A DNA stretch of 64,000 bases, from IMG/VR virus record IMGVR_UViG_3300037485_002668, positions 1 through 64,000 of that record, one strand, 5' to 3'. Below are positions 22,708 to 45,900 of this stretch, in pieces (the stretch's first letter is position 1; each line of letters begins with the position of its first letter). This DNA comes from a virus. The notes beneath the pieces are model-generated. The model was not told where the DNA came from, searched no databases, and worked only from the letters and a program-made list of their open reading frames with translations. The position numbers were made by a program, and so were the translations under genes.

Positions 22708-22955
22708 AAAATAGTTTTCAAAATACCAAAAGCAATTGGGATAAAAATAATTATGGAACAAAAACCAGCAGATCGTTTAACGGGCGTTCCCTGATCATCA
22801 ACGGGGTCATCTTCGCCTAAAAATGAATCAGATCCCTCAGTACAATCGTGACAGGGGGAATTGGTTTTTAACTCTTTATCGGCGCCGATACAAAAGCCAG
22901 ATTCGATTTCTTTGCCACACTTGGGATTGCAGCAAATAATTCTATACGTTCCCAC
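22704..22955 (-). CDS. tail-anchored zinc-ribbon protein 2
   Basis: 83 residues from a GTG preceded by GGAGGT. Cys pairs CCNPKCGKE and CHDC, an acidic linker, then SAGFC and membrane segment SIIIFIPIAFGILKTIL. Same layout as the other four members. It is directly upstream of, and coupled to, the sigma54 activator gene. Confidence 0.65.
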   Translation of the reverse strand: MGTYRIICCNPKCGKEIESGFCIGADKELKTNSPCHDCTEGSDSFLGEDDPVDDQGTPVKRSAGFCSIIIFIPIAFGILKTIL

Positions 22956-23628: not shown

Positions 23629-23823
23629 TTAACGTAAAATAATCCCTAAAATAAGAATACCTACCAGGAGTGTACATCCGGGGCCGGTAACGTTTGAATC
23701 TTTTTTGCAGTCAGGACAGTAATCCCCGGAACCGACAAAGGTATGTCCGCAGCTTGAACATACGGAATGTTCCAACTTTGGAATTTTTAATTCGTCTGTA
23801 TTTTTTGATTTTTCTTCGGACAT
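23629..23823 (-). CDS. tail-anchored zinc-ribbon protein 3
   Basis: 64 residues: a charged start, a zinc ribbon (CSSCGHTF, CPDCKKD), GPGC, then membrane segment TLLVGILILGIILR. It is the shortest of the five and shows the design most clearly. Confidence 0.68.
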   Translation of the reverse strand: MSEEKSKNTDELKIPKLEHSVCSSCGHTFVGSGDYCPDCKKDSNVTGPGCTLLVGILILGIILR

Positions 23824-24588: not shown

Positions 24589-24834
24589 CTAAATTAAAAA
24601 TGAAACAATAATTGGAACGCTGAAAATAAAAAATAACGGAACGATACAGCCAATCCCAAAGCAGCCTTTATCGACATAGCTGCCTTCGTCTGAGCCGGTT
24701 GGTGATTGACCCGCGTTTTTGCAAGCTGTACAGGTTATGTATTTTGTTTCGATGGTATCAGATAAACTGGGGGTGCTTGTGCTCCCAAAAATCCGACCAC
24801 AATGCCTGCATTCAGTTTGCCTTGTCTTCGCCAT
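24589..24834 (-). CDS. tail-anchored zinc-ribbon protein 4
   Basis: 81 residues. Zinc ribbon CRHCGRIF and CTACKNAG, a Ser/Gly/Asp linker, then DKGCFGIGC and a long membrane segment IVPLFFIFSVPIIVSFLI. It has two Cys at the membrane border where the others have one. Confidence 0.65.
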   Translation of the reverse strand: MAKTRQTECRHCGRIFGSTSTPSLSDTIETKYITCTACKNAGQSPTGSDEGSYVDKGCFGIGCIVPLFFIFSVPIIVSFLI

Positions 24835-25039: not shown

Positions 25040-25295
25040 AACATTCTTGCAACCAAACGGGATCAAAATTAAATGGCCACATAAACCAACCATTTCTTAC
25101 GCCGTGTGGGTCGGCCTTAATATTGGTTAATTTTGTTTTTACCGGTGCGCTATCACTTTTAGCTATCATGAAAAAGCTTAAAATAGATGCGACATTTGGA
25201 TTGGCGACTATGTCTGGATGCCCGCAACTTGAATGGCAATCGCCTGGGCATGGCCGTCGCCAGCGGCATTGGTAACAATTTTCTTGATCTGTCAT
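25005..25295 (-). CDS. Cys-rich hypothetical protein
   Basis: 96 residues from MTDQENCYQC, whose ATG overlaps the upstream stop (ATGA). Seven Cys fall within the first 25 residues (CYQCRWRRPCPGDCHSSCGH), a pattern seen in small zinc or iron-sulfur clusters. The remainder is unremarkable. Function unknown. Confidence 0.55.
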   Translation of the reverse strand: MTDQENCYQCRWRRPCPGDCHSSCGHPDIVANPNVASILSFFMIAKSDSAPVKTKLTNIKADPHGVRNGWFMWPFNFDPVWLQECYGFEASDAPQI

Positions 25296-25501
25296 ATAAT
25301 TTGGCAAAGATATAATTTAATAATAAATGAAATAATTATTAATGAACATCCACTTGCACTCTTTAATTTATTAGAACAATTTTTACACAAAGCATCCGCA
25401 TATTCAGTTCGGGTTTCATCGTCCTTTAATTCGTTGTCATGATAACTTCCTTTGTGCAGTCCACAACCTGGACAAAGTACTTCAACGTTATGATTTTTCA
25501 T
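25292..25501 (-). CDS. tail-anchored zinc-ribbon protein 5
   Basis: 69 residues: CPGCGLHKG, an acidic middle, CKNC, then SASGC and membrane segment SLIIISFIIKLYLCQII. It is the first of the five in transcription order, directly after yidD. Confidence 0.66.
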   Translation of the reverse strand: MKNHNVEVLCPGCGLHKGSYHDNELKDDETRTEYADALCKNCSNKLKSASGCSLIIISFIIKLYLCQII

Positions 25502-25516
25502 TTTATTTTCTCCTAA

Positions 25517-25726
25517 CTACCTAACCGGGTCAAAGCCGCCACGATTGAACGGGTTACAGCGCAGGATACGCCAGCAACCCAGGGCGATCCCTTTTAAGAC
25601 GCCGTACTTTTGAATGGCCTGCAAGGTATAGGTTGAGCAGGACGGGGTAAACCGGCAACATGGCGGTTTCAATGGTGATAAGTATTTCTGATACCATTTG
25701 ATTAAGGCGACAAATAAGTTTTTCAT
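25517..25726 (-). CDS. yidD: YidD, membrane protein insertion factor
   Basis: 69 residues, almost entirely the YidD family pattern: [53 protein letters not shown]. In bacteria YidD sits between rnpA and yidC and helps YidC insert membrane proteins. Here it heads an operon rich in small tail-anchored proteins, which may need such help. It was probably taken from a host. The three Cys typical of the family are kept. Confidence 0.92.
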
Positions 25727-26157: not shown

Positions 26158-27042
26158 TTATTTTTTGAATTTCAGGTTGGACGGGGCGGACGGGGGACGG
26201 GGGTCGGATGGCTGGCAGGGGGTGGTGGGGTTTACCTGCAAATAGACCCAGGTCTCGGCGCACTTTACGCCGTGCTGGTCGATAACTACCTGGATAAAAT
26301 CGTAACGGTTATCGCTGGACGGACGCTCACGGGTGTCCCAGGTAAGTTCGCCGTGAATGTTGGCATCGTACAGGTAGGTGGCGGCGGGATCCATTTCGTC
26401 ATCACGGGCGCTGGAATATTTGGGGTGGGCAATTTTGTCACCCATGTAGATTGCCCAGTAACGAACGCCGTATTTCAGGTCGTCTGCGCCGTTTGGATCC
26501 GTGGCGGTGTCCAGGCGGAAATGAATGACGGGGCAGTTGATTTGGTAACGGTTACCCCAGGAGCCATCGCCGCCTGAAACGTTGATAAATTGCGTTCGGG
26601 AAATAGGGGGTAAGTTGCCGGCGGGCGGGGCGTAGGGTTCCACGAACGGACGGTTAACCGGGGGGATTTCCAGGTAAAAATAGGTTTCGGTCGAGACGGA
26701 ACTGGCGCCCTGCTGGATGGTCAATTTCAAATAGTACTGGCCGCAGATATTGGTATGGGAAAAGACTTTGTTAACTACGGATGGCCAGGATTCAAACACG
26801 GGAAACAAAACGTTGCTGCACGAACGGTGCAGGTTCATGTGGATTTCGCTGGCCAGTTGCGCGGCGCTGGTGCAGGTACTTTGGTCCACGCGCCAACGGA
26901 TGGTCGTGCTGCGGATTATATATGGTTCGAAATAGGAACCGCTACCTGCAACGGGGATCGAGACCAGGGTGATGCGCGGGGTTTGGGCGGGGCAAATCCA
27001 GGCGATTGCGAAATACAAGATAATAAGGAAAAGTTTTTTCAT
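26158..27042 (-). CDS. exported beta-rich protein
   Basis: 294 residues with a Sec signal peptide (MKKLFLIILYFAIAWICPAQ). The mature part has two similar halves, each starting with a W-R/F-R-x-D segment and ending in WVYLQVNP or YFYLEIPP, which suggests tandem beta-sandwich domains. Several Cys pairs are consistent with export. The C-terminus is Pro-rich. It is last in the late operon. It may coat the cell surface or associate with the tail fibre after lysis. No family recognised. Confidence 0.6.
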   Translation of the reverse strand: MKKLFLIILYFAIAWICPAQTPRITLVSIPVAGSGSYFEPYIIRSTTIRWRVDQSTCTSAAQLASEIHMNLHRSCSNVLFPVFESWPSVVNKVFSHTNICGQYYLKLTIQQGASSVSTETYFYLEIPPVNRPFVEPYAPPAGNLPPISRTQFINVSGGDGSWGNRYQINCPVIHFRLDTATDPNGADDLKYGVRYWAIYMGDKIAHPKYSSARDDEMDPAATYLYDANIHGELTWDTRERPSSDNRYDFIQVVIDQHGVKCAETWVYLQVNPTTPCQPSDPRPPSAPSNLKFKK

Positions 27043-27089: not shown

Positions 27090-27542
27090 TTAAAAGAGTT
27101 TTTTCAGAAATGATTTGGTACTGGTGGTCATGGGTTCGTATTCGTAAATGTTAATATCGATTACGATCCGGTTTACGTTTGGCGGCGGAGGGGAATCGAT
27201 GGCGAAGGTTTTATCGTTAACCAGCTTTTCGATTTCGGTCGCGTTGAATTTCATTTCTACCGTATCCAGGTAAAGGCGGGTAGAACCGGCTTTCAGGGCT
27301 TTGAAATTGACCGTCAAAAATTTAATCAGTTGATTCTGGATGGTGGTATTTTCAAAGCCGCAGGCGATAATGTTATTCGTACCCGCGGGCATATTGGCGA
27401 TTTCCAGCGGGAAAATACCAGACGTTTTTTTGGCCTGATATTCAAGATAAAGCGGATCAAAATGAAAAATAAACGCGGCGTTACTCAGGGAACCCTCCAG
27501 GGCGCCCTCGACTTTGGCAGTGAATAAATCATTGACGTACAT
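27090..27542 (-). CDS. cohesin-like domain protein
   Basis: 150 residues. The sequence runs as a cohesin-type beta sandwich: FTAKVEGALEGSLSNAAFIF, HFDPLYLEYQ (the Y-D-P-x-x-L pattern), ACGFENTT, then FLTVNFKALKAGSTRLYLD. A Pro-rich linker and a basic tail follow. It has no signal peptide. Its start overlaps the stop of the dockerin-containing gene, which is the expected binding partner type. The assignment is from pattern only and needs a profile check. Confidence 0.55.
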   Translation of the reverse strand: MYVNDLFTAKVEGALEGSLSNAAFIFHFDPLYLEYQAKKTSGIFPLEIANMPAGTNNIIACGFENTTIQNQLIKFLTVNFKALKAGSTRLYLDTVEMKFNATEIEKLVNDKTFAIDSPPPPNVNRIVIDINIYEYEPMTTSTKSFLKKLF

Positions 27543-28315
27543 TATTTAGTTCCTTTCAATTGTTCAAACGTGGTAGACAGAGCGCCAAGACGGACGGCGG
27601 AATTTTTTTGCAGGCCGTACCGTTCGGCAAAAATTTTAAAATCGTAACTGTAAATGATGCCGTCACGGTTGGTATCGAAGGCGCGTTTATAACAGGAATT
27701 ACCTGACAGGCAATAAAAGCTATTCGCAAACGCGGTGAAGTCGCTGAGGTAAACCTTGCCATCATTATCGAAATCGCAGGAATTGGGGACGGCAATGGTA
27801 CTGGCGGCGGTGGCGATAATTTCATTTTGCAGGTTCAGCGCCTGCACCGTAATCGCGGCGGTGGTCCAGATGGGCTGATCGGGCAGGATAATCGTGGCGC
27901 CATTTTCGAAGGTGGTCAGCGTTTCGGAGTGGGCGCCGATTACGCACGTGAGCGCGTACGCGGGAGCGCTAGGCGTCCAGGCGCAGGCGATACTGGCATC
28001 GGCATAAGTCAGGTAAGTAATAGCCAGTGAGACCAGGATGGTATCTACCTGGTTGGAATAGGCGGATTCATTACCGATACTATCGTAAGCCGTGGCGACA
28101 AAATAGTAATGGGCGGGGGTGGTAAAGGGGATGGACTTTTCGAGTACCTTACCCACGTTCAGGATGGTAGAATAGGTGTCGCTGGCAGTACCGTAATAAA
28201 TTCGGTAACCGGATAGGTCGGGTGTGGTTACGGGATCCCAGGCGAGTTTAACCGTAAACTGGCTAAAGGCAACCGTGACCATTAATAACAAGGAAAGGAT
28301 TATTTTTTTAGGCAT
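27542..28315 (-). CDS. exported Fn3-dockerin protein
   Basis: 257 residues from MPKKIILS (GGAGG 8 nt upstream). Signal peptide to about residue 18. A fibronectin type III domain spans about 20-93 (LAWDPVTTPDLSGYRIYYG, YYFVATAYDSIGNESAYSN). A second beta domain follows. A dockerin-like pair of calcium loops lies at about 181-234 (DFDNDGKVYLSDF and DTNRDGIIYSYDF, each D-x-N/D-x-D-G). Dockerins bind cohesins, and a cohesin-like gene is next in the operon. Confidence 0.75.
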   Translation of the reverse strand: MPKKIILSLLLMVTVAFSQFTVKLAWDPVTTPDLSGYRIYYGTASDTYSTILNVGKVLEKSIPFTTPAHYYFVATAYDSIGNESAYSNQVDTILVSLAITYLTYADASIACAWTPSAPAYALTCVIGAHSETLTTFENGATIILPDQPIWTTAAITVQALNLQNEIIATAASTIAVPNSCDFDNDGKVYLSDFTAFANSFYCLSGNSCYKRAFDTNRDGIIYSYDFKIFAERYGLQKNSAVRLGALSTTFEQLKGTK

Positions 28316-28580
28316 TTTGAGCGCCTCCATTTTTAATTTGCAGATATTTCTCGAACCCTGTTTTTCCCAGGAACAGGCCGAAACAGATAATAAATAAATT
28401 AACCGTCAGCGAATAGACGGGCGTTAGCGCGGCAATTTTGACAGGGTCAGCGTTGGCGATTTTCAGGAAAATGAAAATCAACGCAAACGCCGAAACCGAA
28501 AAGCCCTGGAACCCGCGGGAGGTTAGGTTATACAGGACCTTATCGAAATGCCGACGCCAGAAAATTTTATTCTCAGCCAT
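28308..28580 (-). CDS. two-segment membrane protein, candidate holin
   Basis: 90 residues from MAENKIFW, the second of two close ATGs (AAGGA is 6 nt before it). Two membrane helices (GFSVSAFALIFIFLKIANA and VYSLTVNLFIICFGLFLG) with a basic start. It lies downstream of the tail fibre gene next to another small membrane gene, the common place for holins. No endolysin is recognised nearby. Confidence 0.55.
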   Translation of the reverse strand: MAENKIFWRRHFDKVLYNLTSRGFQGFSVSAFALIFIFLKIANADPVKIAALTPVYSLTVNLFIICFGLFLGKTGFEKYLQIKNGGAQNA

Positions 28581-28863
28581 TGCCATTCCTTTTAGAATGA
28601 TACGTTTCAATGTGGTGGTCGTGCCAAAGTAAATTTTTTTCGAGGGAACCACTCTGTTTATTTAAATAGTCCTGGATGGTTTGCAATTGAATGCCCGTGA
28701 CATTGCTTGTTTCCGAAAGCAAATTTTCCAGTTTCATGATGTCGGTCTTTGAGGCCATCGTATTGCGAACCTTCCAGTCTACACGGATCACATACGCGAC
28801 CACCGCAAATAGCGTTAACAGGATATGCCAGTATGCCGAGAGAGAATTAAGTATGCCTTCCAT
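28573..28863 (-). CDS. membrane-anchored coiled-coil protein
   Basis: 96 residues: an N-terminal membrane helix (YWHILLTLFAVVAYVIRV), then a helical heptad-like region (DIMKLENLLSETSNVTGIQLQ), then a His-rich end. The layout resembles holin-associated XhlA-like or spanin-like proteins. It overlaps the next gene by 8 nt. Confidence 0.52.
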   Translation of the reverse strand: MEGILNSLSAYWHILLTLFAVVAYVIRVDWKVRNTMASKTDIMKLENLLSETSNVTGIQLQTIQDYLNKQSGSLEKNLLWHDHHIETYHSKRNGNG

Positions 28864-28869
28864 AGAACC

Positions 28870-31095
28870 TTAATTAGTTTGAATAAAAACCATTTCGATG
28901 TCCGTACCGGACTCATAACCGGCGGTGAAATTAAATTTAAACTGGTCGCGGTCAAGTTGGACGTTGATATTCGTGGCGGGGGTGACATAATATTCATAAT
29001 AGCAGGCCATGACGACGGGGTGATAATACGCATCCAGCGCATTCCACAGAGTTTCCGCACGGGTGCGCACGGTATAATCGTCATAAGAATCCAACGTGAC
29101 CTTGAGAACTTTTTGGGATTTGCCGATTTTGTATTGGTGATAATAATTCGTTTGTTTCCAGAATTGATCTAATTTCTGGACATTGGCGATTTCGATTTGT
29201 TTCACTTCGTCATAATTAAAGGCAACGGAGGAACCGCTATACACAAAGACCAGGCACGCATCCGCGCCGAACGAGGCGGAAGAGGAACTGGAACTGGACA
29301 CCGAGGCCGAAGATGAAGACGAAGATGAAAATGACGAACTGGAGCTAGAAAATGACGAGCTTGAACTAGAAAAGGATGACGAACTGCTGGAAAGGGAACT
29401 AGACGATGACGAACTTGAAAAAGAACTGGACGATGAAGACGAAGAAAAGGATGACGATGACGAGCTACTCGAAAAAGAAGACGACGACGATGAAAAAGAA
29501 GATGAAGACGAGGAGCTGGATTGGGAACTGGACGATGATGACGAACTAAACGAACTGGAACTAGACGAGCTCGAAAAAGACGATGAAGATGATGAAAAAG
29601 AAGACGATGATGACGAAAAGGATGATGAAGATGACGAAGAAAAAGACGATGACGATGATGAAAATGATGAACTGGAAGATGAAGATGATGATGACGAACT
29701 GGAGGCAGCCACTAATTCACTGGCGCCGATATACCAGGTAGAACGGGTATTGCCAATAACGTCATCGGTAAAGACGCCGCTTAAATCTTCGCCGTCATCT
29801 AAAGTTGTAATTTCATCGCCGCCGGCGGTTAGTTTGTAATTGTCAGCGTCATAATCCACAAAGCAGGAAGTGCCATCATGACAATTTAAGCTCCGATAAG
29901 CGACGTCGGGACTGGTAGCGTCTTCGGAAACGTTGTAACCGTTAGTGGTAAAGGAACCAGTAAAGCAGCCCGATACACAAGATTGAACCAGATTGTTTTT
30001 AATGGTAACGGTATTTAATAATTGCGCAATCCCATAACCGCTACCTTTGGCTACGGTATTATTAAAAACGTTATTATTGACGCCAGCCAAACGAACATAA
30101 CCGCCGCAACCATAAATAATATTGTTCCGGATATTGGCAACGGTGCAGGCGCCATCGGTACGAATAGGAGTAGTTGAACTATCGCCTTTAATTAAACAGC
30201 GATTAATTAAAATCGTACCGCAATCGGCCGCGTAAATTCCAATATTCCCAGACCCTGAAGCGTCCAGCGCCAATTTAGAAACTTCGATATTCGCCAGATG
30301 GCCTTCAGTAGTTTCGTCAAAATAGATGCTGTCACTGGTACCAAAGTTGATGCGTGCGCCATTACCATACGCGGAACCATCATGTTCAGCACCCGCCTGC
30401 GCGGTAATTTTCAGAAGATTGCCGTTGGTGTTGGTATCAAAAATAACATAACCCGCAATTGCGGTTTCTTCTGAAAGATGTTCACCCGTCAAATTTCCAG
30501 TCAAGGTCGCTTCGATATCAGCTTCGAAAGAGGTTAACGTGGCATAATCACCACCGGCGCCTGCGCCAATTTGGTAGGTACCGGTCGAAATTGTGCCGCG
30601 TGAATAATCCTTTTCGGTATTTAGTCGGGTGTGCGAATGTTCACTTTTCAGGATCGAAGTGAAATCGTGAACGTCGCTTAAAATTATCTGATTATGTTTC
30701 CGGCTTTTGTCATAAATGGATTCATAATCCGATAAGGTAATATAGCCTTCGTTCAACAACCATTGAAAATCGACAAACCATTCGCGCTTTAAACGCTGAG
30801 GGTCAAACAGTTCAGGATCGGATTCCCAAATAAATTTACCAGATTCATTGGTAACTGAAAGGAACTTCTTTAAATTACGAACGGATTTTTTAGTAGACTT
30901 CCAATCCCGGCTACCCCGAATTTTCCAGAAATCGACATTGGGCAATTCAATCACGCAATGGTGTTTACGTTCCATTTCGCCATTGAATGAATGGTCATCG
31001 CGAATGTCAATAATTTGACCATCGCGCCAGCCCTGGCGGTGACGGTCATCGAAACGTTCGTGGTATTTGCTACCGATTTTGATTAATAATTGCAA
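28870..31095 (-). CDS. beta-helix tail fibre with poly-serine stalk
   Basis: 741 residues from a TTG (GAGGG upstream). Residues ~1-155 are a charged N-terminal domain, ~160-450 a right-handed beta helix (GGDYATLTSFEADIEATL, many N-N-x-I/V turns). About 155 residues of almost pure Ser with Phe every 6-9 residues come next, then a C-terminal ~110-residue domain (NYHQYKIGKSQKVLKVTLDS). The Ser codons are mixed, so the tract is selected as protein. It probably binds or cleaves a surface polysaccharide. The N-terminal beta-helix motif recurs in the gene at 36026. Confidence 0.78.
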   Translation of the reverse strand: MQLLIKIGSKYHERFDDRHRQGWRDGQIIDIRDDHSFNGEMERKHHCVIELPNVDFWKIRGSRDWKSTKKSVRNLKKFLSVTNESGKFIWESDPELFDPQRLKREWFVDFQWLLNEGYITLSDYESIYDKSRKHNQIILSDVHDFTSILKSEHSHTRLNTEKDYSRGTISTGTYQIGAGAGGDYATLTSFEADIEATLTGNLTGEHLSEETAIAGYVIFDTNTNGNLLKITAQAGAEHDGSAYGNGARINFGTSDSIYFDETTEGHLANIEVSKLALDASGSGNIGIYAADCGTILINRCLIKGDSSTTPIRTDGACTVANIRNNIIYGCGGYVRLAGVNNNVFNNTVAKGSGYGIAQLLNTVTIKNNLVQSCVSGCFTGSFTTNGYNVSEDATSPDVAYRSLNCHDGTSCFVDYDADNYKLTAGGDEITTLDDGEDLSGVFTDDVIGNTRSTWYIGASELVAASSSSSSSSSSSSSFSSSSSSFSSSSSSSFSSSSSSFSSSSSSFSSSSSSSSFSSSSSSSSQSSSSSSSSFSSSSSSFSSSSSSSSFSSSSSSSSFSSSSSSSSLSSSSSSFSSSSSSFSSSSSSFSSSSSSSASVSSSSSSSASFGADACLVFVYSGSSVAFNYDEVKQIEIANVQKLDQFWKQTNYYHQYKIGKSQKVLKVTLDSYDDYTVRTRAETLWNALDAYYHPVVMACYYEYYVTPATNINVQLDRDQFKFNFTAGYESGTDIEMVFIQTN

Positions 31096-31502: not shown

Positions 31503-32447
31503 TCATTTAATTATTTGTAAATTAGTAACTTTATCTGGCGGGGTAGTATCACCACCTGGGTTATTCCAGCCAGCTAACTTTGCCAGCAATACCCAAAAGG
31601 CTTTGGCCTTATTTTCACAATTTTCAAAAGACGTGTGGCCATCCTGATTTAAATTATAATGGCTGTGTTCCCGTTTAAAGGCGCGGCCGTTATAAGCGCC
31701 TGAATAGTTTACTATGTCATCGCCACATTCCCAGGCTTGGGTATTGGGATTAAACCAATAATAGTCAATGTCGCCAAAATCAAATAAAACTTTATTATTA
31801 TTGCGGCAAAAGGTGCGAATCTGTTCATTGTTCACATAGGCAAAATAACCACAGACGTCATAACTGGCATCGGTCGGGCTGTAGGTATGGTGGCCGTAAT
31901 AGGTGCCGGAATGGCCGGTCATGTAAATAAAAATTACGTTTGGACTTTGCGATTCAAGGATGGGCATCGCATTCAGGTAACGGGGAATATAACTGACGGG
32001 ATCAATACTGACGCGTTGCTGATAACACCACGTCCAGGTTGACAGGTTTAATAAGGGATTGGCTTGTAACGTATTTCGAACGTTCAATTTGCCGGCGTCC
32101 GAATCCCAATATTCCTGGTGTTCAATGTAATTATCGCAACTGCCGCTGGCGCCCAGACCTTTAGAAATCGAAAAAATAGCCGGGTTTTCAATCACAGAAC
32201 AATCCCGAACCTGGAAATCCAGATTGCTATTTTGCGCCTTGAGGCGGGTCATACCGATTATGATTTGTTCACCGTGGGAACTATTGCAGAAATTTAAATT
32301 GAACATCGCTTTCGCACGGGTGATATACGCGCCGGGGATCTGGTCGAATTCCGCTACCGCTAAATGGTCGATAATTAAGCCCTGGGCGGAGAGATTGGTA
32401 AGGTAAAAAATGGCGGTACAAAACAGCAGGTACAGCGTGCGCAACAT
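31503..32447 (-). CDS. exported SGNH-hydrolase-like protein
   Basis: 314 residues with a signal peptide (MLRTLYLLFCTAIFYLTNLS). CNSSHGEQ may carry the block I Ser. VIFIYMTGHSGTYYGHH resembles block III, and KREHSHYNLNQDGHTSFEN supplies a late Asp-x-x-His-like site. It could be an esterase acting on surface glycans. The C-terminus (PPDKVTNLQIIK) looks like the start of an Fn3 or anchoring tail. The catalytic assignment is tentative. Confidence 0.5.
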   Translation of the reverse strand: MLRTLYLLFCTAIFYLTNLSAQGLIIDHLAVAEFDQIPGAYITRAKAMFNLNFCNSSHGEQIIIGMTRLKAQNSNLDFQVRDCSVIENPAIFSISKGLGASGSCDNYIEHQEYWDSDAGKLNVRNTLQANPLLNLSTWTWCYQQRVSIDPVSYIPRYLNAMPILESQSPNVIFIYMTGHSGTYYGHHTYSPTDASYDVCGYFAYVNNEQIRTFCRNNNKVLFDFGDIDYYWFNPNTQAWECGDDIVNYSGAYNGRAFKREHSHYNLNQDGHTSFENCENKAKAFWVLLAKLAGWNNPGGDTTPPDKVTNLQIIK

Positions 32448-32453
32448 AGCACC

Positions 32454-32846
32454 TCATTTGAGTTTAAAGTTCAGCGGCGGGAAAATTTTGGCGGGAACCA
32501 ACGTATCAAACACGGCGGGACAGAGCGGGGTCGGGCTGGCAGTATCATAAGGCGCGACACAAAAAAACCAACGCATATTGGCGGGAACGAAAATTGAGGC
32601 GGAAGTGGCGGTTTGGACGTCCAGCATTTCGGTAAAGTACGCCGCGCCCGGTCCCCAGTACAGACGATATCCATACGGGGTGGGAACTTCAGGCCAGGCC
32701 ACGTCCACCCGATGCAAGTTCAATTTATAATTCTGATAATCGGTATAGACGGTCAAAAGTAAATTGCAATGCGGTTCCCATTTAGCCTGCGCGGGGGTCA
32801 GGATAATCAGCAATACCAGGAATAATTTTTGGAATAAATTACACAT
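32454..32846 (-). CDS. exported Fn3-like protein
   Basis: 130 residues from MCNLFQKL, with a signal peptide (LFLVLLIILTPAQA). VDVAWPEVPTPYGYRLYWGP and RWFFCVAPYDTASPT follow the Fn3 pattern seen in the dockerin protein at 27542, so the two are probably related. ATG after GAGGC. Confidence 0.58.
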   Translation of the reverse strand: MCNLFQKLFLVLLIILTPAQAKWEPHCNLLLTVYTDYQNYKLNLHRVDVAWPEVPTPYGYRLYWGPGAAYFTEMLDVQTATSASIFVPANMRWFFCVAPYDTASPTPLCPAVFDTLVPAKIFPPLNFKLK

Positions 32847-33702
32847 GATTTGCCTCGGCGAATAATTGAAAACGGCGGTAACACAAATCAAAGGCGTTCA
32901 GATAACGGCGGCGGGAATAATCGCCCATTTGCCAATCCTTCAAATAATTTTCCATGGTGGTAATTTGGTCGGAACGCCAGCCGGCATCCCACCATTTACC
33001 GTGAACAGAATAAATGCGCTCCTCAGTGCCGGAATAAAGTTCGCCTTCCTTTTCCAAAATAGCGGTTTCGGGTTTTAGAATCCAATGGTGAATGCCGGTG
33101 AAAGTATAGGGCGGCAAACAGAGCATCCGTTTATGCTTTTCCAACTTCAAACCCAAAATATTCAGGAACAGAAAGTCATCAAAATAAGCGGCGGTTTCAA
33201 ATTCAAGAAAATGGCGGAACCAATCGATGTTTTTCACATCGAGAAAAATCGGCGAGGTGGTATGGACTTCGGGATAAACCGCGGCGGGGCGGCGTAAATC
33301 CACCTGATATTTTTGTTGATAGGCGGTATCAAAATTAATTAACATGCCGTTGCTGCCAGTGACAATCCAATGCTGGGCGGCAAGTTCAAAGAATTTCGTA
33401 CAATTGGCGGTAAAAAAAGTGTCGATGTCCAAAAGACAGATCGATTTATAGCGGGGCGCGGCGTCCAGGGCGAGGTGAAAGCGGCGGATGGCGGTTTGAC
33501 GCACCGGGTCGCCGTCAGATACATTCAATATTTTAACGCAGGCCGGGGTTTTTAGTTCAGGCAATTGATAACCTGCGATAAGGATATCGATATTATTAGC
33601 GGGGTGGTACTCCATGAAGGAGTTGATAAAGGCGTACAGGGCGGGGAGGTAATTGGGACTGGCGCCGGTGATGAAGGCGTATCTTGCTGGCATGTCAGTC
33701 AT
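32839..33702 (-). CDS. glycosyltransferase, GT-A fold
   Basis: 287 residues when begun at MTDMPARYAF; MPARYAF is equally possible. YAFITGASPNYLPALYAFIN is a GT8-like start, and LLDIDTFF has the metal-binding D-x-D at 92-94. A C-terminal IYSVHGKWWDAGW follows. It would transfer a sugar from a nucleotide sugar, perhaps onto a tail protein or host surface glycan. The next gene is a second transferase. Confidence 0.72.
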   Translation of the reverse strand: MTDMPARYAFITGASPNYLPALYAFINSFMEYHPANNIDILIAGYQLPELKTPACVKILNVSDGDPVRQTAIRRFHLALDAAPRYKSICLLDIDTFFTANCTKFFELAAQHWIVTGSNGMLINFDTAYQQKYQVDLRRPAAVYPEVHTTSPIFLDVKNIDWFRHFLEFETAAYFDDFLFLNILGLKLEKHKRMLCLPPYTFTGIHHWILKPETAILEKEGELYSGTEERIYSVHGKWWDAGWRSDQITTMENYLKDWQMGDYSRRRYLNAFDLCYRRFQLFAEANHV

Positions 33703-39522: not shown

Positions 39523-39944
39523 TACGCAACCCTCCCGAAAAAATGCAACTGCGTTTCGTACCGGGCGGCGCGGCGGCCATAGGTGATAATTTCCATATAG
39601 TTCGGGTCGAGAATCATATCCATGTACGTGCCGGCGACCTCCAGGTAACGGTAATAGACGCGGACTTTATAATTGTTCGCAATGACGGCGCGGACTTTTG
39701 TTAAAGTGGACAGATATTCGTGAAAAATATCCAAGTCCAAGCGCCAATGTTCACGGTTACTGGCGGCGGCGGAAACCTTAGTGGGGTCATAAAGCGTGGG
39801 GTAAGCGTCATTCGTTTCAAGCGTGAACAGATTATTGACCGTATAAATCTGGGCGGCGTTAATTTCCATTTCGTCAAAATCGTAGGCGGTACCCCAGGCG
39901 GCGCCGTTATAAAGTTGAATGCGGGTAACGTTGACGGCAGGCAT
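39522..39944 (-). CDS. small tail protein
   Basis: 140 residues, beta-rich, starting MPAVNVTRIQLYNGAAWG. Its ATG and stop overlap the neighbouring genes as TAATG and ATG junctions. By position it resembles the distal tail protein that follows the tape measure in siphophages. Confidence 0.62.
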   Translation of the reverse strand: MPAVNVTRIQLYNGAAWGTAYDFDEMEINAAQIYTVNNLFTLETNDAYPTLYDPTKVSAAASNREHWRLDLDIFHEYLSTLTKVRAVIANNYKVRVYYRYLEVAGTYMDMILDPNYMEIITYGRRAARYETQLHFFGRVA

Positions 39945-42900
39945 TATGACCTCCCGAAACTGGTGACAGTGGTAATATTTTTCGAGCGGTCACGATACCA
40001 GCGTTCGGATTTCTTTTTGAACTCCACCCAGGCACTCGGGTCGCCGCTGTGAACGATCACATCGAAATTCAGGTCCACGTTGGACGTGGCGGGTTTGGCG
40101 TTCGGGAAAACGTTGGGGTCGCCCGTGGAAATGAACTGACGCCAGTTGGGTTCGGGGTATTTGGAAACCACGCCTTCAGGGATTACGACTTCGTTGCGTT
40201 TTAGTTTGGCGATAACTTCATCGGCGGCGATAAGGCCGGTGTGGGCGGTGACATCGTAGCCGAAACCGCCGGTATGGAGTGGGGGCGGGGTTGGCGGTGG
40301 CGTACCGTTATTGGCGGCGGCCAACCACTCCATTAATGCCTGAAGTTGAGCGTAAGCCTTAGTTAAATCCAGGTCAATTTCAATTTTCTTTTGATTATAT
40401 GTATCAATTAAAGTATTTAAATCATCTTCAAGCTTTTTTAATTGATTCTCAAATTCAGTAATTTCTAAATCGATTTCAAGTTGTTTGTTGTTATAAGTGG
40501 TATATAGTTCGTCTAACTTTTTCTTGAGTGCTTCGATTTGGTCTATCGCTTCTTGTTTAACAGCATCTTTGGCCGCGTTTTCATCCAGGACACCGCCAGC
40601 ATCGGTAAATTTTTTCTTTAATTCCTCAAGTTGCGCCGCCATGTCTTTATACGCCTGGCTGTTTGGATCGAGCGTAGCCAGAAAGTCTTGCATTCTGAAA
40701 ATCATGGCGTTAATTTGTTCGTCTGCGCCAGTGGTATTGAAATCGATTTTAAAATAAGTCAGTTTATCAAGCGCCTTAGTGGCAGTATCAAAATCGGTAG
40801 AAAATTGGTCGTAATCGGCAAAAAGCGTATCCAGCATTTCACCCCAGTTAATTACCAATGCGTGCGTTTGGCCTGAGATACCTTCGAGCAACTTTTGAAT
40901 TTCATATAGATTAGGCGGTGTATTACTTCCCATCCGTGCTAAAATTTCATTTAATGATTTTACATTAGAAGTTATTTTTGCACGGTCAATTTCAAACGCA
41001 TGTGTCAGTAAACTTTTTTCTTTTAATTTATCAGTAATGCTTTTTTGAATATCCATAATTTGAAATTCAATTTTTTCACGATTGGCATTGAATTCTACCT
41101 CAAGACTAATTTTCTCTTTTTCTAAATCCGCTATGGTTTTATTCAAATCAGTAATGGCAGCCTCTACTTTATTTTTTAAATCAGCGGCCATTGAATTTAA
41201 TTGTAGATTGTTTGCGATTAGCCACTCGTTTAGCGTTCCCTGATAACCGTTCATGACGGCTAAAGCGTACTGAGCTTTGTAAATGTTATCGGTCAGGTCT
41301 TTGTACGCTTGCGACTGGGGATCGAGGGTTGCCAAAAGTGCTTGATTGTCAGCAATTGCCGCTTGCAAATCCGCAGTCATTTGTGGAAATTGAATATTTC
41401 CATAATAATTTTTCAATTCCAAAGCTTTTTCCGCTAACGACCCGAGTCCCGTAATTTGCGATGTAACAGCATCCGCCAACTCCGTAGTTAAACCACCGGT
41501 CGCGGCAGTTGCAGCAAGTAATTGTTCTACCAGAGTTTGTAAAGGTTCGGCTGCATTATTTAGTGCTAAATTGTTTTCCAACAACCATTCGTTCAAAGTC
41601 CCCTGGTAACCGTTTAAAACCGCCACAGCGTATTGCGCCTGCATAATCGCATCCGCCATGTCTCTATATGCTTGTGACTGTGGATCCAATGTAGCCAGTA
41701 AGGCTTGATTTTGCTGGATGGTGTTCAACAAATCGGTTTCGATAGTCATGTTCGGCATTTCGCCAAAATATTTTTTCAGACGAATTGCCTCTTCCGCCAT
41801 ACTGGTTAAGCCAGTCAGCGAGGAATCAAAAGCCGCGCCTAATTCAGCGGTAATCCCGGTGGTCGATTCAACAGCGGCTTTAAATTGATCCGCTAACGTT
41901 TCTATCTGGGCAGCCTGATTATTCAGGTGTAAATTATTATTTAAAAGCCACTGATTGAAATCACCCTGGAATCCGTTCATAACTGCCAGGGCGTATTGTG
42001 CCTTATAAATATTGTCAGCTAAATCGCGATAAGCTTGTGACTGTGGGTCCAGCGTAGCAAGTAACGCCTGGTTGTTTGCGATTGCGGCTTCCAAATCTGC
42101 TGTCATTTGTGGAAACTTAATATTCCCGTAGTAATTTTTAAGCTCTAAAGCTTTGTCGGCTAATGATCCAAGCCCGGTGATTTGAGAAGTAACCGCATCT
42201 GCCAGTTCAGCGGTCAATCCACCAGTGGCTGCAGTAGCCGCCAGTAGCTGGTCAATCAAAGTTTGAAGTGGTTCTGCTGCATTGTTAAGCGCCAGGTTGT
42301 TTGCTATTAACCATTCGTTCAGCGTGCCTTGAAATCCATTCATGACGGCTAAAGCATATTGCGCTTTATAAATATTATCAGATAGGTCTTTATATGCCTG
42401 AGAAGTTGGATCTAACGTAGCTAAAAGTGCTTGGTTGTTGGCAATAGCCGCCTCCAGGTCTGCGGTCATTTGTGGAAATTCGATGTCGCCAAAATATTTT
42501 TTCATTTCCAGTGCACGATCAGCCAGGTCACCAAGACCTTTCACTGTGTCTTTAAACTGATTCCCTAACTCTTCAGTCAAACCAATCCCGAGCTGGAAAG
42601 CATCCACAAATTGTTCCTGGAAAGTTTGGACAGCGGCAGTCGTGTTGTTTAATGTAATATTGTGGAGTCGCAAGTATTCGTCTATACTGGCAACTTCACC
42701 ACGTGCCACAGCCAGTGCGGCCTGGGCTTTCCAGATTTCATCTTGTAAATCACGGTACGCCTGAGACGTGGGATTCAAAGTTCCCAGTAAAGCTTGGTTG
42801 TCCGCGATAGCTTGCGCTAAAGCTTGTTCCATTTCGCCAGTCGGCATGTTAAAATATTCTTTTACCCTTAACAATTCGTCTGCCAAAGAACCTAATCCCT

Positions 42901-45900
42901 GACGACTGGAATCGAAAGCGCTGGAAAGTTCGGAAGTCAAACCAGTTATGTCAATCGATTCCAAAAAATTGGCGGCTAGTTCATGTAACGCTGCGAAGGT
43001 AGCTTCCGCCCCGTTAGCCATGGCATCTAAAACTGTTTTGGTAGTGCTTAGTGTGATATTATATTTTGTGAAATATTCGTCTATGGAACCTACTTCACCA
43101 CGCAATACAGCTAATGCCGCTTCCGATTTCCAAATGCTATCTTGAAGTTCACGATATGCCACTGAAGTTGGATCAAGCGTAGCCAGCAATCCTTTGTTGT
43201 CAATGATCGCTGCTTGCAAGTCACGTTCCATGCTGGGAAATTTTATATCACCAAATTTCGCTCGCAACTGAACGGCGTTATCGGCTAAATCTGTCATCCC
43301 CTTTTGTGACTTTTCGAAGGCACTCAGCCAATCACCTGAAAGTAATTTGCGCCCGGCTTTTTCAAATTCTTCCCCCATCTTCTCAGCATCCTGTGCAATC
43401 TTTTGTTTCTGCATCCCCTCATTTAATTCCGCTAATTTGGCGGTTACCCAAACCAGTGCATCGCCAGAAAGCACCCCACTGTCACGTAATGCTTCTAATC
43501 CGGAGATTTGTTCCCGTAATGGCGCGCTTGAATCTAAAAGTTTCCCGTACAGACCATCCAGTTTATCCATTACTTGCTGGTATTCATAAGATCCGGCTTG
43601 CAATTTAGGTAATAGTTCGGAATAGGCGTTGATTTGTTCCATTACGCCATCGGTTGTTTCAATGCCCAACTCAGAAAGTTTTTTCAAAAGTTCCTGGTGT
43701 TCGGTAAGTTGAACATTCGATTGACTTAGCTTTTCACGTAATTGGTCAATCGCCATCATGACATTTTCATATTCAATCGAATCTTTACTAAGATTCGCGG
43801 CCACGCCTTCCAGCATCTTGATTTGATCCGCTAAAGGCGTATCCGATGCCGTCAACTTCTGAATAAGACTATTAATATTTTCGGTTGCAACCTGATATTC
43901 AGCGGAACCGATTTGCATGGTAGTCGCTAAGGCGTACCACTGTTTTATCTGTTCGTCAATTGGTGCATTTGAATCGACCAACTTACTAAGCGCCTGGCCA
44001 ATTTTATCATAAAGTTGACGGTATTCGTAAGAATTTACATCCAATTGAGCGGCCAGTAACGTCCAACTTTGAACTTGTTTTAATACCGATGCCTGGGTTT
44101 CAACGCCTGCCGCATCCATTGCTTCGTTAAATTTTTCCTGAGCGGATTTTGCTTTTTCTATTACCTCGCCGGTATTATTTAGCTGTAAATTATTCGCCAA
44201 TAGCCAGGAATTGAATTCACCCTGATAGCCATTCATGACCGCCAGGGCATATTGAGCTTTGAAGATATTATCAGCTAAATCTTTATACGCTTGAGATGCC
44301 GGATCTAAAGTAGCCAAAACAGCTTGATTGCCCGCAATCGCAGCTTCTAAGTCAGCCGTCATTTGTGGAAATTTTATATCACCATAATAGTTTTTCATTT
44401 CGATGGCTTTGTCCGCCAGAGAACCCAGGTCGGTTATTTGAGATTTGACGGCATCGGCTAAGGCGGTGGTAAGGCCACCTAATTTTTCAATTGATTCCTG
44501 AATACTATCGGCAAAAGTCTTTTGACCTTCAGTGGCACGTTCGGATGCATAGTTAGCCGCTAACATTTCATCACCCGTACCTTCGACCCGAATCGCTAAA
44601 TTTTCAAACCATTGTTCCGTACTGGAAACTTCACCCCGTAAGACTGCCATCGTTGCCTGCGCTTCCCAAACCTGGATAGTCATTTTTTTGTAAGCATCGG
44701 AAGTTGGGTCCATGGTTGCAAGCAAGCGTAAATTCCCCTGCACGTTTTCATTTATTAAATCAGCCAGTCCCTTTTGACCCCAATCGGCCTTGCCGAATTG
44801 TTCCTGATTCTTTGCCGCAACGTCAATTAAATATTGCAAGTCTTCAGTGGCTTTGGTAAAACTATTATCAAAAGTAAAGGCGCGGGTTAACCGTTCCAAT
44901 TCAGCCGTGTTGTTCTTTAGTTTATCGGTAAATTCTTTTTGGATTTTTTCGCCTAAATCTTTAAAGCCTTCACCCATGTTTTTCATGTTTGCGCCAATGG
45001 TAACCATTACTAAAAAGGCTTGATTGGTATTGTTCAGACTGGTCAATAGTTTTGATTCAAAATCATTGGCAAGGTTATTTACTAATTCGTCAAGGGTTGT
45101 AATTTGCGTACCTAAATCACCCAGGCTGTCTTTCATATCATTGACAGTAATTCCGGTTTTTTCGGCGGAACCGCCTAACACATCCATCAATAATGACGCG
45201 GCTTGCAATCCCAAAGAAACAGGATCAAGGCCGCCTTTTAAAAAGCCAGTTACTGTACTTGTTAATAAATCGACCGCCTTAGAACCCGTATCACCTAAGC
45301 CTAAAAACTTTTTCGCAACGTCACCGATTTGACCGGCGTATTCAGTCCAGTCTTTTGCGCCTTTCTCCGATTTTTGTGAAAGTCCCTCTACCTGTTCCTG
45401 GCTAATCCCCGCCTGAGCGACAAAAGCCTCCCAGCCTTTGGTATCGCCAATTTTTTCGTAAAGCGATTTGATATTACCTAAAAGTTGTTTTTCACCATAG
45501 GCATCGCCCAACTCTTTGGCAACGGGTATCAACGCCGCCTGATTTGCAATCTGTTCGCGAACGGAAGAGGTTAATTCGATACCGGCATCGGTTAACATTT
45601 GAAGCCCAGTCTTTTGAGCATCGATAGCACTATTTGACCGATCCATCTCTTCCATTAAGGAAACGATTCGATCCTCGACCATCTGATAACCAGTGGAGCC
45701 CTCCACCAATTTAGAACGAACGTCTTGTAATTGGGAAATTTGTTTTTCAATAGGTGCATTGGTATCAACAACCTTATCAATAGTTTCTTTTATTTTTTTG
45801 GTTAACTGGTCGTAATAGCCTGAACCCTTTTCAACCTGATCTGATAAGGCTGAAAATTTATCGATTTGTTTCGTATTGTTTTCTAATAGGTCAACACCTG

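What the first reader, a model, noticed from the sequence alone, without database searches (positions are those of the whole stretch)
27090..28315. Adjacent cohesin-like and dockerin-like proteins in a tail operon
Cohesin-dockerin pairs build cellulosomes. Finding both as neighbouring genes beside phage adhesins suggests calcium-dependent assembly of a fibre or surface complex. The dockerin protein is exported, while the cohesin-like one is not.
Basis: partly seen in the sequence, partly recalled or inferred. Interest (0 to 1): 0.7.

Follow-up and report, generated by a model that had tools for sequence, protein, structure and literature searches.

The report
Cohesin-like and dockerin genes in phage
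A long-tailed bacterial virus carries, as two coupled neighbouring genes, a secreted protein ending in a calcium-binding docking module and a small protein resembling that module's usual socket, a pairing best known from bacterial cellulose-degrading machines; whether the two bind each other is untested.

Summary
The window is part of a 99,244-bp phage record. Gene 27542-28315(-) encodes a signal peptide, an fn3-like region and a C-terminal dockerin with two intact calcium loops. Gene 27090-27542(-) starts on the dockerin stop codon, has its own ribosome-binding site and cannot encode a signal peptide. Its cohesin relationship is weak by Pfam (16 bits, cut-off 24.1), but a profile of 31 bacterial cohesins picks it alone from 543 viral frames (E 1.1e-5; 0 of 20,000 shuffles). 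Structure prediction failed, so fold and interface are untested. No relatives were found. In Cloacimonadota all five listed cohesins in short open frames lie directly downstream of a dockerin gene, so such couples have a bacterial precedent; those cohesins are exported, the phage one is not. Best reading: a one-to-one, non-cellulosomal, calcium-dependent docking pair whose partners meet outside the cytoplasm. Binding is inferred; the host is unknown.

The parts
27542..28315 (-). dockerin protein gene, 257 aa: signal peptide, fn3-like region, second beta region, C-terminal dockerin
   Evidence: ORF; Dockerin_1; 2y3n_B E 3.4e-4
28259..28315 (-). signal peptide, about residues 1-19 (MPKKIILSLLLMVTVAFSQ)
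   Evidence: read from the translation; listed by a simple pattern scan; no dedicated predictor was run
28040..28258 (-). fn3-like region, about residues 20-92, beginning at the strand that follows strand A
   Evidence: weak fibronectin matches in the PDB; blastp to secreted bacterial proteins, 30-40% identity over residues 1-119
27611..27784 (-). dockerin module, residues 178-235
27740..27775 (-). calcium loop 1, DFDNDGKVYLSD
27641..27676 (-). calcium loop 2, DTNRDGIIYSYD
28324..28328 (-). ribosome-binding site GGAGG, 8 nt before ATG 28315
27551..27556 (-). ribosome-binding site AAAGGA, 8 nt before ATG 27542
27540..27544 (-). TAATG stop-start overlap joining the two genes; six other 1-nt overlaps of this kind lie in the window
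27090..27542 (-). cohesin-like protein gene, 150 aa, no signal peptide; cohesin-related part about residues 14-115
28870..31095 (-). long poly-Ser protein, probable tail fibre, upstream on the same strand
   Evidence: sequence; no Pfam or PHROGs hit
28573..28863 (-). small membrane protein, holin-like by appearance only
   Evidence: sequence; no Pfam hit
28308..28652 (-). small membrane protein, holin-like by appearance only (the real start is probably an internal ATG)
   Evidence: sequence; only PHROGs match E 0.062, unknown function
26158..27042 (-). exported 294-aa protein, next gene downstream; not cohesin-like
   Evidence: no Pfam or PHROGs hit; hhalign to cohesins 0.2%

Best explanation
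A phage-encoded, one-to-one, non-cellulosomal cohesin-dockerin couple. Shown: an exported fn3-type protein ends in an intact two-loop dockerin; the next gene, translationally coupled but with its own ribosome-binding site, encodes a small protein that is a probable distant relative of cohesins and has no export signal. Inferred: the two bind each other through the dockerin. Further inferred: the dockerin can fold only where calcium is plentiful, outside the cytoplasm, so the exported partner waits in the periplasm or on the surface; the cytoplasmic cohesin-like partner is a virion or tail-associated protein; the two meet at lysis or at the next cell surface, so that the virion picks up, or holds on to, an fn3 adhesin.
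For: Dockerin. Cohesin relationship: only outlier among 543 frames, 0 of 20,000 shuffles, first of 169 ORFs in hhalign; the 18-sequence alignment A4 used for retrieves 36 PDB chains, 30 named scaffoldin, cohesin or anchoring proteins, 4 NagJ and 2 endoglucanase. Coupling: TAATG and an own ribosome-binding site. Single partner each in the record. Precedent: the five cohesin rows listed with open frames under 200 aa all lie directly downstream of a dockerin gene (the dockerin in L149 read by eye), probably two independent cases because four loci look orthologous. In print, 'adjacent cohesin/dockerin domains' are mentioned for Hot-Seep1 (PMC10553843, passages).
Against: Cohesin score under Pfam's cut-off; PF00963 scan of the record finds nothing; hhalign probability only 41-47%. 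The first cohesin strand is missing from the ORF (alignment A1). No signal peptide on the cohesin-like protein, whereas all nine bacterial cohesin proteins looked at from those five loci have one. The profile of 11 Cloacimonadota-type dockerins gives the phage dockerin frame only 9.2 bits, E 0.043, so it is not of that type. No homologues, hence no conservation of the pair. Both structure models failed.
Confidence: 0.4

Rival explanations
1. The dockerin targets cohesins of the host or of its neighbours: the exported phage protein plugs into surface cohesins (receptor masking, superinfection exclusion, or adhesion of the infected cell), and the neighbouring protein is not its partner.
For: Cohesins and dockerins are abundant in some bacterial phyla: PF00963 in 67 of 124 and PF00404 in 69 of 124 genomes of the phylum of G001, a genome titled Candidatus Cloacimonadota. 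The dockerin protein is exported; the cohesin-like one is not.
Against: Host unknown: no convincing spacer-like match in 121 and 288 genomes of two phyla (one 12-kb piece only, short imperfect matches). The phage dockerin is not of the Cloacimonadota type. It leaves the adjacent cohesin-like gene unexplained.
Confidence: 0.23
2. The 150-aa protein is a beta-sandwich of the wider cohesin/carbohydrate-binding superfamily without docking function (for example a tail decoration or sugar-binding protein), and its place next to the dockerin gene is chance.
For: Score below Pfam's curated cut-off; missing first strand; no signal peptide; mixed late region in which none of the ten ORFs scanned by Pfam reached a curated cut-off.
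Against: The only Pfam family it touches at E<=1 is Cohesin; it is the only one of 543 viral frames above noise with the cohesin profile, and it lies directly behind the record's only dockerin.
Confidence: 0.25
3. One split gene: ancestrally or by recoding a single exported protein with dockerin followed by cohesin, interrupted at TAATG by frameshift or error.
For: The cohesin's missing first strand could lie in the 22-residue tail after the dockerin; the frames are joined by one base.
Against: Read-through joins do not raise the Cohesin score (15.8 and 16.4 against 16 bits). Own ribosome-binding site. Six other one-base overlaps in the window show that this is a normal gene junction here.
Confidence: 0.07

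Closest known systems
Cellulosomal cohesin-dockerin type I pairs (Clostridia)
   Same: Dockerin with two calcium loops; partner distantly related to scaffoldin cohesins.
   Different: One cohesin-like and one dockerin in the record, no multi-cohesin scaffoldin, no catalytic domain on either protein; the cohesin-like protein is not exported and lacks the first strand.
Stand-alone small cohesin genes behind dockerin genes in Cloacimonadota (loci L145-L149)
   Same: Dockerin protein gene directly followed by a cohesin protein of 154-160 aa on the same strand.
   Different: Bacterial cohesins carry signal peptides and in four loci are followed by a second cohesin gene; the dockerin protein there is a deiminase-like enzyme (my reading). 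Sequence similarity to the phage pair is near noise.
Non-cellulosomal cohesins and dockerins of ANME archaea and syntrophic sulfate reducers
   Same: Used outside cellulose degradation, thought to link surface proteins; passages of PMC9012536 and PMC10553843.
   Different: Cellular genomes, not virus-encoded.
Earlier phage reports naming dockerin: Vibrio phage VvAW1 gene 40; E. coli phage vB_EcoS_HSE2 Gp02
   Same: Phage proteins said to resemble dockerin proteins (PMC3558961, one passage; PMC5967307, two passages).
   Different: VvAW1 gene 40 is reported as a BLASTP similarity only; HSE2 concerns a carbohydrate-binding module of a cellulosomal protein (PDB 2wz8). Neither passage mentions a cohesin neighbour. 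Three tblastn searches with dockerin or cohesin queries found no convincing match in 50,697 phage records.

Membership tests
Dockerin type I module | Two calcium loops with D/N at positions 1, 3, 5 and 12 | tested here: met
   DFDNDGKVYLSD and DTNRDGIIYSYD; the position rule is recalled
Dockerin type I module | Match to the curated Pfam profile over its cut-off | tested here: inconclusive
   23.3 bits, over, in the six-frame search; 20.4 bits, under 22.9, in the whole-protein scan
Dockerin type I module | Part of an exported protein, usually terminal | tested here: met
   N-terminal signal peptide by sequence; module near the C-terminus
Dockerin type I module | Calcium-dependent binding to a cohesin | not testable with these tools
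   needs protein
Cohesin | Match to Pfam PF00963 over the curated cut-off | tested here: not met
   16 of 24.1 bits; no match in the six-frame scan
Cohesin | Recognisable homology to known cohesins by a tailored profile | tested here: met
   E 1.1e-5, only outlier of 543 frames, 0 of 20,000 shuffles; hhalign 41-47%
Cohesin | Complete nine-strand beta-sandwich (strand count recalled) | tested here: inconclusive
   model useless, pLDDT 38; alignment starts after the first strand
Cohesin | Extracellular, with an export signal | tested here: not met
   no signal peptide and no possible in-frame extension
Cellulosome | Scaffoldin with several cohesins plus dockerin-bearing enzymes | tested here: not met
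   one dockerin and one cohesin-like frame in the 99-kb record; no enzyme domain on either protein

The most novel reading that the evidence does not exclude
A calcium-gated snap fastener for a virus: the phage exports a dockerin-tagged fn3 adhesin, keeps the matching cohesin-like socket on the virion side of the membrane, and the two click together only after lysis or at a new cell surface, where calcium lets the dockerin fold.
Probability: 0.15. Interest if true: 0.8.

Novelty: new variant of a known kind. Interest (0 to 1): 0.5.

Why it matters
Cohesin-dockerin pairs are among the tightest and most engineered protein fasteners. None of four dockerin domains and five cohesin domains from bacteria, nor the phage's own dockerin, matches any of 38,880 PHROGs families at E<=0.1, and literature searches for phage-encoded pairs found none (full text of open-licence PMC papers only). 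A phage-borne pair split across the cell membrane would be a new way to assemble or decorate a virion in two compartments, and would offer a small orthogonal pair for engineering.

Tried and rejected
Relatives: scans of IMG/VR with both proteins, the major capsid protein (18), a tail protein (19) and the terminase (68), and of GTDB genomes with the cohesin-like protein (21), gave no confirmed relative; the tool may leave out near-identical records. A search of viral contigs with the Cloacimonadota-type cohesin alignment A2 gave 205 pattern hits, none confirmed (64). tblastn of both proteins against 50,697 phage records gave nothing convincing.

Host: a YidD scan gave mostly Clostridia, but YidD is too conserved to tell. 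The capsid protein has one distant match in the phylum of G001, in a contig (L151/L152) whose other ORFs share nothing with this phage by blastp and which holds no cohesin. DNA searches for spacer-like matches in two phyla gave only short imperfect hits, which I judge to be chance. The host stays unknown.

Single-sequence cohesin-like search in 395 genomes of the phylum of G002: 3 of 395 matched at E<=0.01 (90); the one match without stops reads as ribosomal protein S6 (my recognition; 95) and none of the three loci scores as a cohesin (95), so such matches are chance.

Split-gene idea: read-through joins do not help the Cohesin score (40). Donor-strand idea: the phage fn3 lacks strand A while three exported phage proteins end in an fn3-strand-A-like tail (87); secreted bacterial fn3 proteins show the same missing strand (94), so it is not phage-specific; not pursued.

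Structure prediction: cohesin-like pLDDT 38 (53), dockerin 45 (86); no fold search was run on these models, since matches would be meaningless.

Full report
Setting. The window is bases 1-64000 of a 99,244-bp virus record. The capsid protein (phrog_3922, E 6.9e-42), a 2734-aa tape-measure protein and a PBSX-type terminase in the rest of the record (L003) mark it as a long-tailed phage. Its closest terminase match in 50,697 phage records is 47.8% identical, and pattern-based searches of IMG/VR found no relative of its capsid, a tail protein or terminase. Late genes run on the minus strand.

The dockerin gene. The frame 27542-28315 (-) starts at ATG 28315, preceded at 8 nt by GGAGG. The 257-aa product has a signal peptide (read from the sequence), an fn3-like region that begins directly after it, a second beta region, and a dockerin at residues 178-235. 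Dockerin_1 scores 20.4 bits in the whole-protein scan and 23.3 bits, over the cut-off of 22.9, in the six-frame search. The best solved relative is the dockerin of a cellulosomal family-48 hydrolase (2y3n_B, E 3.4e-4, aligned over 62 residues). Both calcium loops are complete. It is not of the Cloacimonadota type: a profile of 11 such dockerins gives 9.2 bits, E 0.043, still the best of the 543 viral frames; for the domain alone it gives 13.8 bits, and 0 of 20,000 shuffles reach that (18,889 were reported, maximum 11.5).

The cohesin-like gene. The frame 27090-27542 (-) overlaps the dockerin stop by one base (TAATG). AAAGGA lies 8 nt before its ATG, and the codons upstream in frame are ATA and TAA, so no signal peptide is possible. 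Six other junctions in the window overlap by one base in the same way. Pfam's only match at E<=1 is Cohesin, 16 bits against a cut-off of 24.1, and a PF00963 scan of the whole record reports nothing. I therefore built a profile from 31 cohesin domains: 30 from the phylum of G001 (G001 is the genome of a locus titled Candidatus Cloacimonadota) and one, itself below the Pfam cut-off, from a Thermoanaerobacteraceae genome. Against all 543 stop-to-stop frames of 60 aa or more in the virus, only this frame stands out (20.0 bits, E 1.1e-5; next 4.3 bits), and none of 20,000 shuffles reaches 20 bits (18,723 were reported, maximum 14.7). hhalign of all 169 viral ORFs of 90 aa or more ranks it first at 40.8%, next 7.5%; against an 18-sequence alignment A4 it gets 46.9%, while three control proteins of the phage get 0.2-0.7%. 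A4 in turn finds 36 PDB chains: 30 named scaffoldin, cohesin or anchoring proteins, 4 NagJ and 2 endoglucanase. The relationship to cohesins is thus probable, not certain. The frame begins after the first cohesin strand, and joining it to the dockerin's tail does not raise the score (15.8 and 16.4 bits), so a split single gene is unlikely.

Precedent for the arrangement. In one search the listed cohesins with open frames under 200 aa are five (G086, G091, G092, G093, G126; the listing is truncated). In all five loci the cohesin gene lies directly downstream of, and on the same strand as, a dockerin protein gene, 8 to 129 bp away (in L149 I read the dockerin by eye). Four of the loci look orthologous, so this is perhaps two independent cases. 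All nine cohesin proteins taken from these loci begin with a signal peptide, unlike the phage one. Pairwise similarity to the phage protein is close to noise: the arrangement, not recent descent, is the parallel. Dockerins occur in 69 of 124 and cohesins in 67 of 124 genomes of that phylum.

Is it known in phages? None of ten query domains (five bacterial cohesins, four bacterial dockerins, the phage dockerin) matches PHROGs at E<=0.1. tblastn with a bacterial dockerin, a bacterial cohesin and the phage dockerin against 50,697 phage records gives nothing convincing. An IMG/VR scan with a cohesin alignment confirmed none of 205 pattern hits. In print I found two loose mentions of dockerin in phages (PMC3558961 gene 40, passage; PMC5967307, passages) and no cohesin-dockerin pair (searches; open-licence PMC only; seen as search listings except where passages are named). 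Cohesins and dockerins outside cellulosomes are known from ANME archaea and sulfate-reducing partners, where surface linkage is proposed (PMC9012536 and PMC10553843, passages).

Mechanism. Shown: the sequence facts above. From general knowledge (recalled): dockerins need calcium to fold and bind, and cytosolic calcium is low. Inferred: the exported dockerin protein is the calcium-loaded half, displayed or stored outside the cytoplasm, and the cohesin-like protein is the half made with the virion; they meet at lysis or at the next cell. Rivals are docking onto host cohesins, and a non-docking cohesin-fold protein. I could not separate these: both single-sequence models failed, no homologues were found in the collections searched, and the host is unknown (searches gave only short imperfect DNA matches in 121 and 288 genomes).

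Verdict. I call the smaller protein cohesin-like, not a cohesin, because it misses the curated cut-off, the first strand and the export signal. The system is not a cellulosome. It is a new variant of a known kind: in the searches named, an adjacent pair of this type was not found described in a phage.

Noticed in passing
L002:1049-4427 (record positions 65049-68427): Four consecutive genes resemble a type IV (IV-B-like) CRISPR module: Csf1 (TIGR03114, E 1e-10), Csf2 (TIGR03115, 7.7e-8), Csf3 (TIGR03116, 0.0019) and a PAPS-reductase/CysH-like protein; the NCBIfam matches are all below the curated cut-offs. Type IV systems in lytic phages and an archaeal virus are reported (PMC10848311, passages).
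   Followed up: partly
window 25517-25726 (-): Phage-encoded YidD, the membrane protein insertion efficiency factor (TIGR00278, E 5.2e-28).
   Followed up: partly
window 26158-27042, 31503-32447, 32454-32891 (-): Three exported phage proteins end in a similar short tail, PP..NL..K, like the first strand of an fn3 domain, followed by stop; shuffled proteomes give 0.055 such ends on average (the pattern was chosen after seeing it).
   Followed up: partly
window 21528-21767, 22704-22955, 23629-23823, 24589-24834, 25292-25501 (-): A set of small proteins that each look like a zinc ribbon followed by a C-terminal membrane segment (by eye).
   Followed up: no
window 28870-31095 (-): Probable tail fibre with a long run of serine blocks interrupted mainly by single F residues.
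   Followed up: no
window 21760-22761 (-): A sigma-54-type AAA+ activator with a C-terminal helix-turn-helix-like end, unusual in a phage in my view (NCBIfam best E 3e-75 on the shared domain, below the family cut-off).
   Followed up: no
L145-L148 (Cloacimonadota genomes): Conserved bacterial locus: a deiminase-like protein (my reading) with C-terminal dockerin followed by two small exported cohesin proteins, the second with a C-terminal sorting-like tail.
   Followed up: partly
window 39944-48148 (-): Tape-measure protein of 2734 aa, which predicts a very long tail.
   Followed up: no
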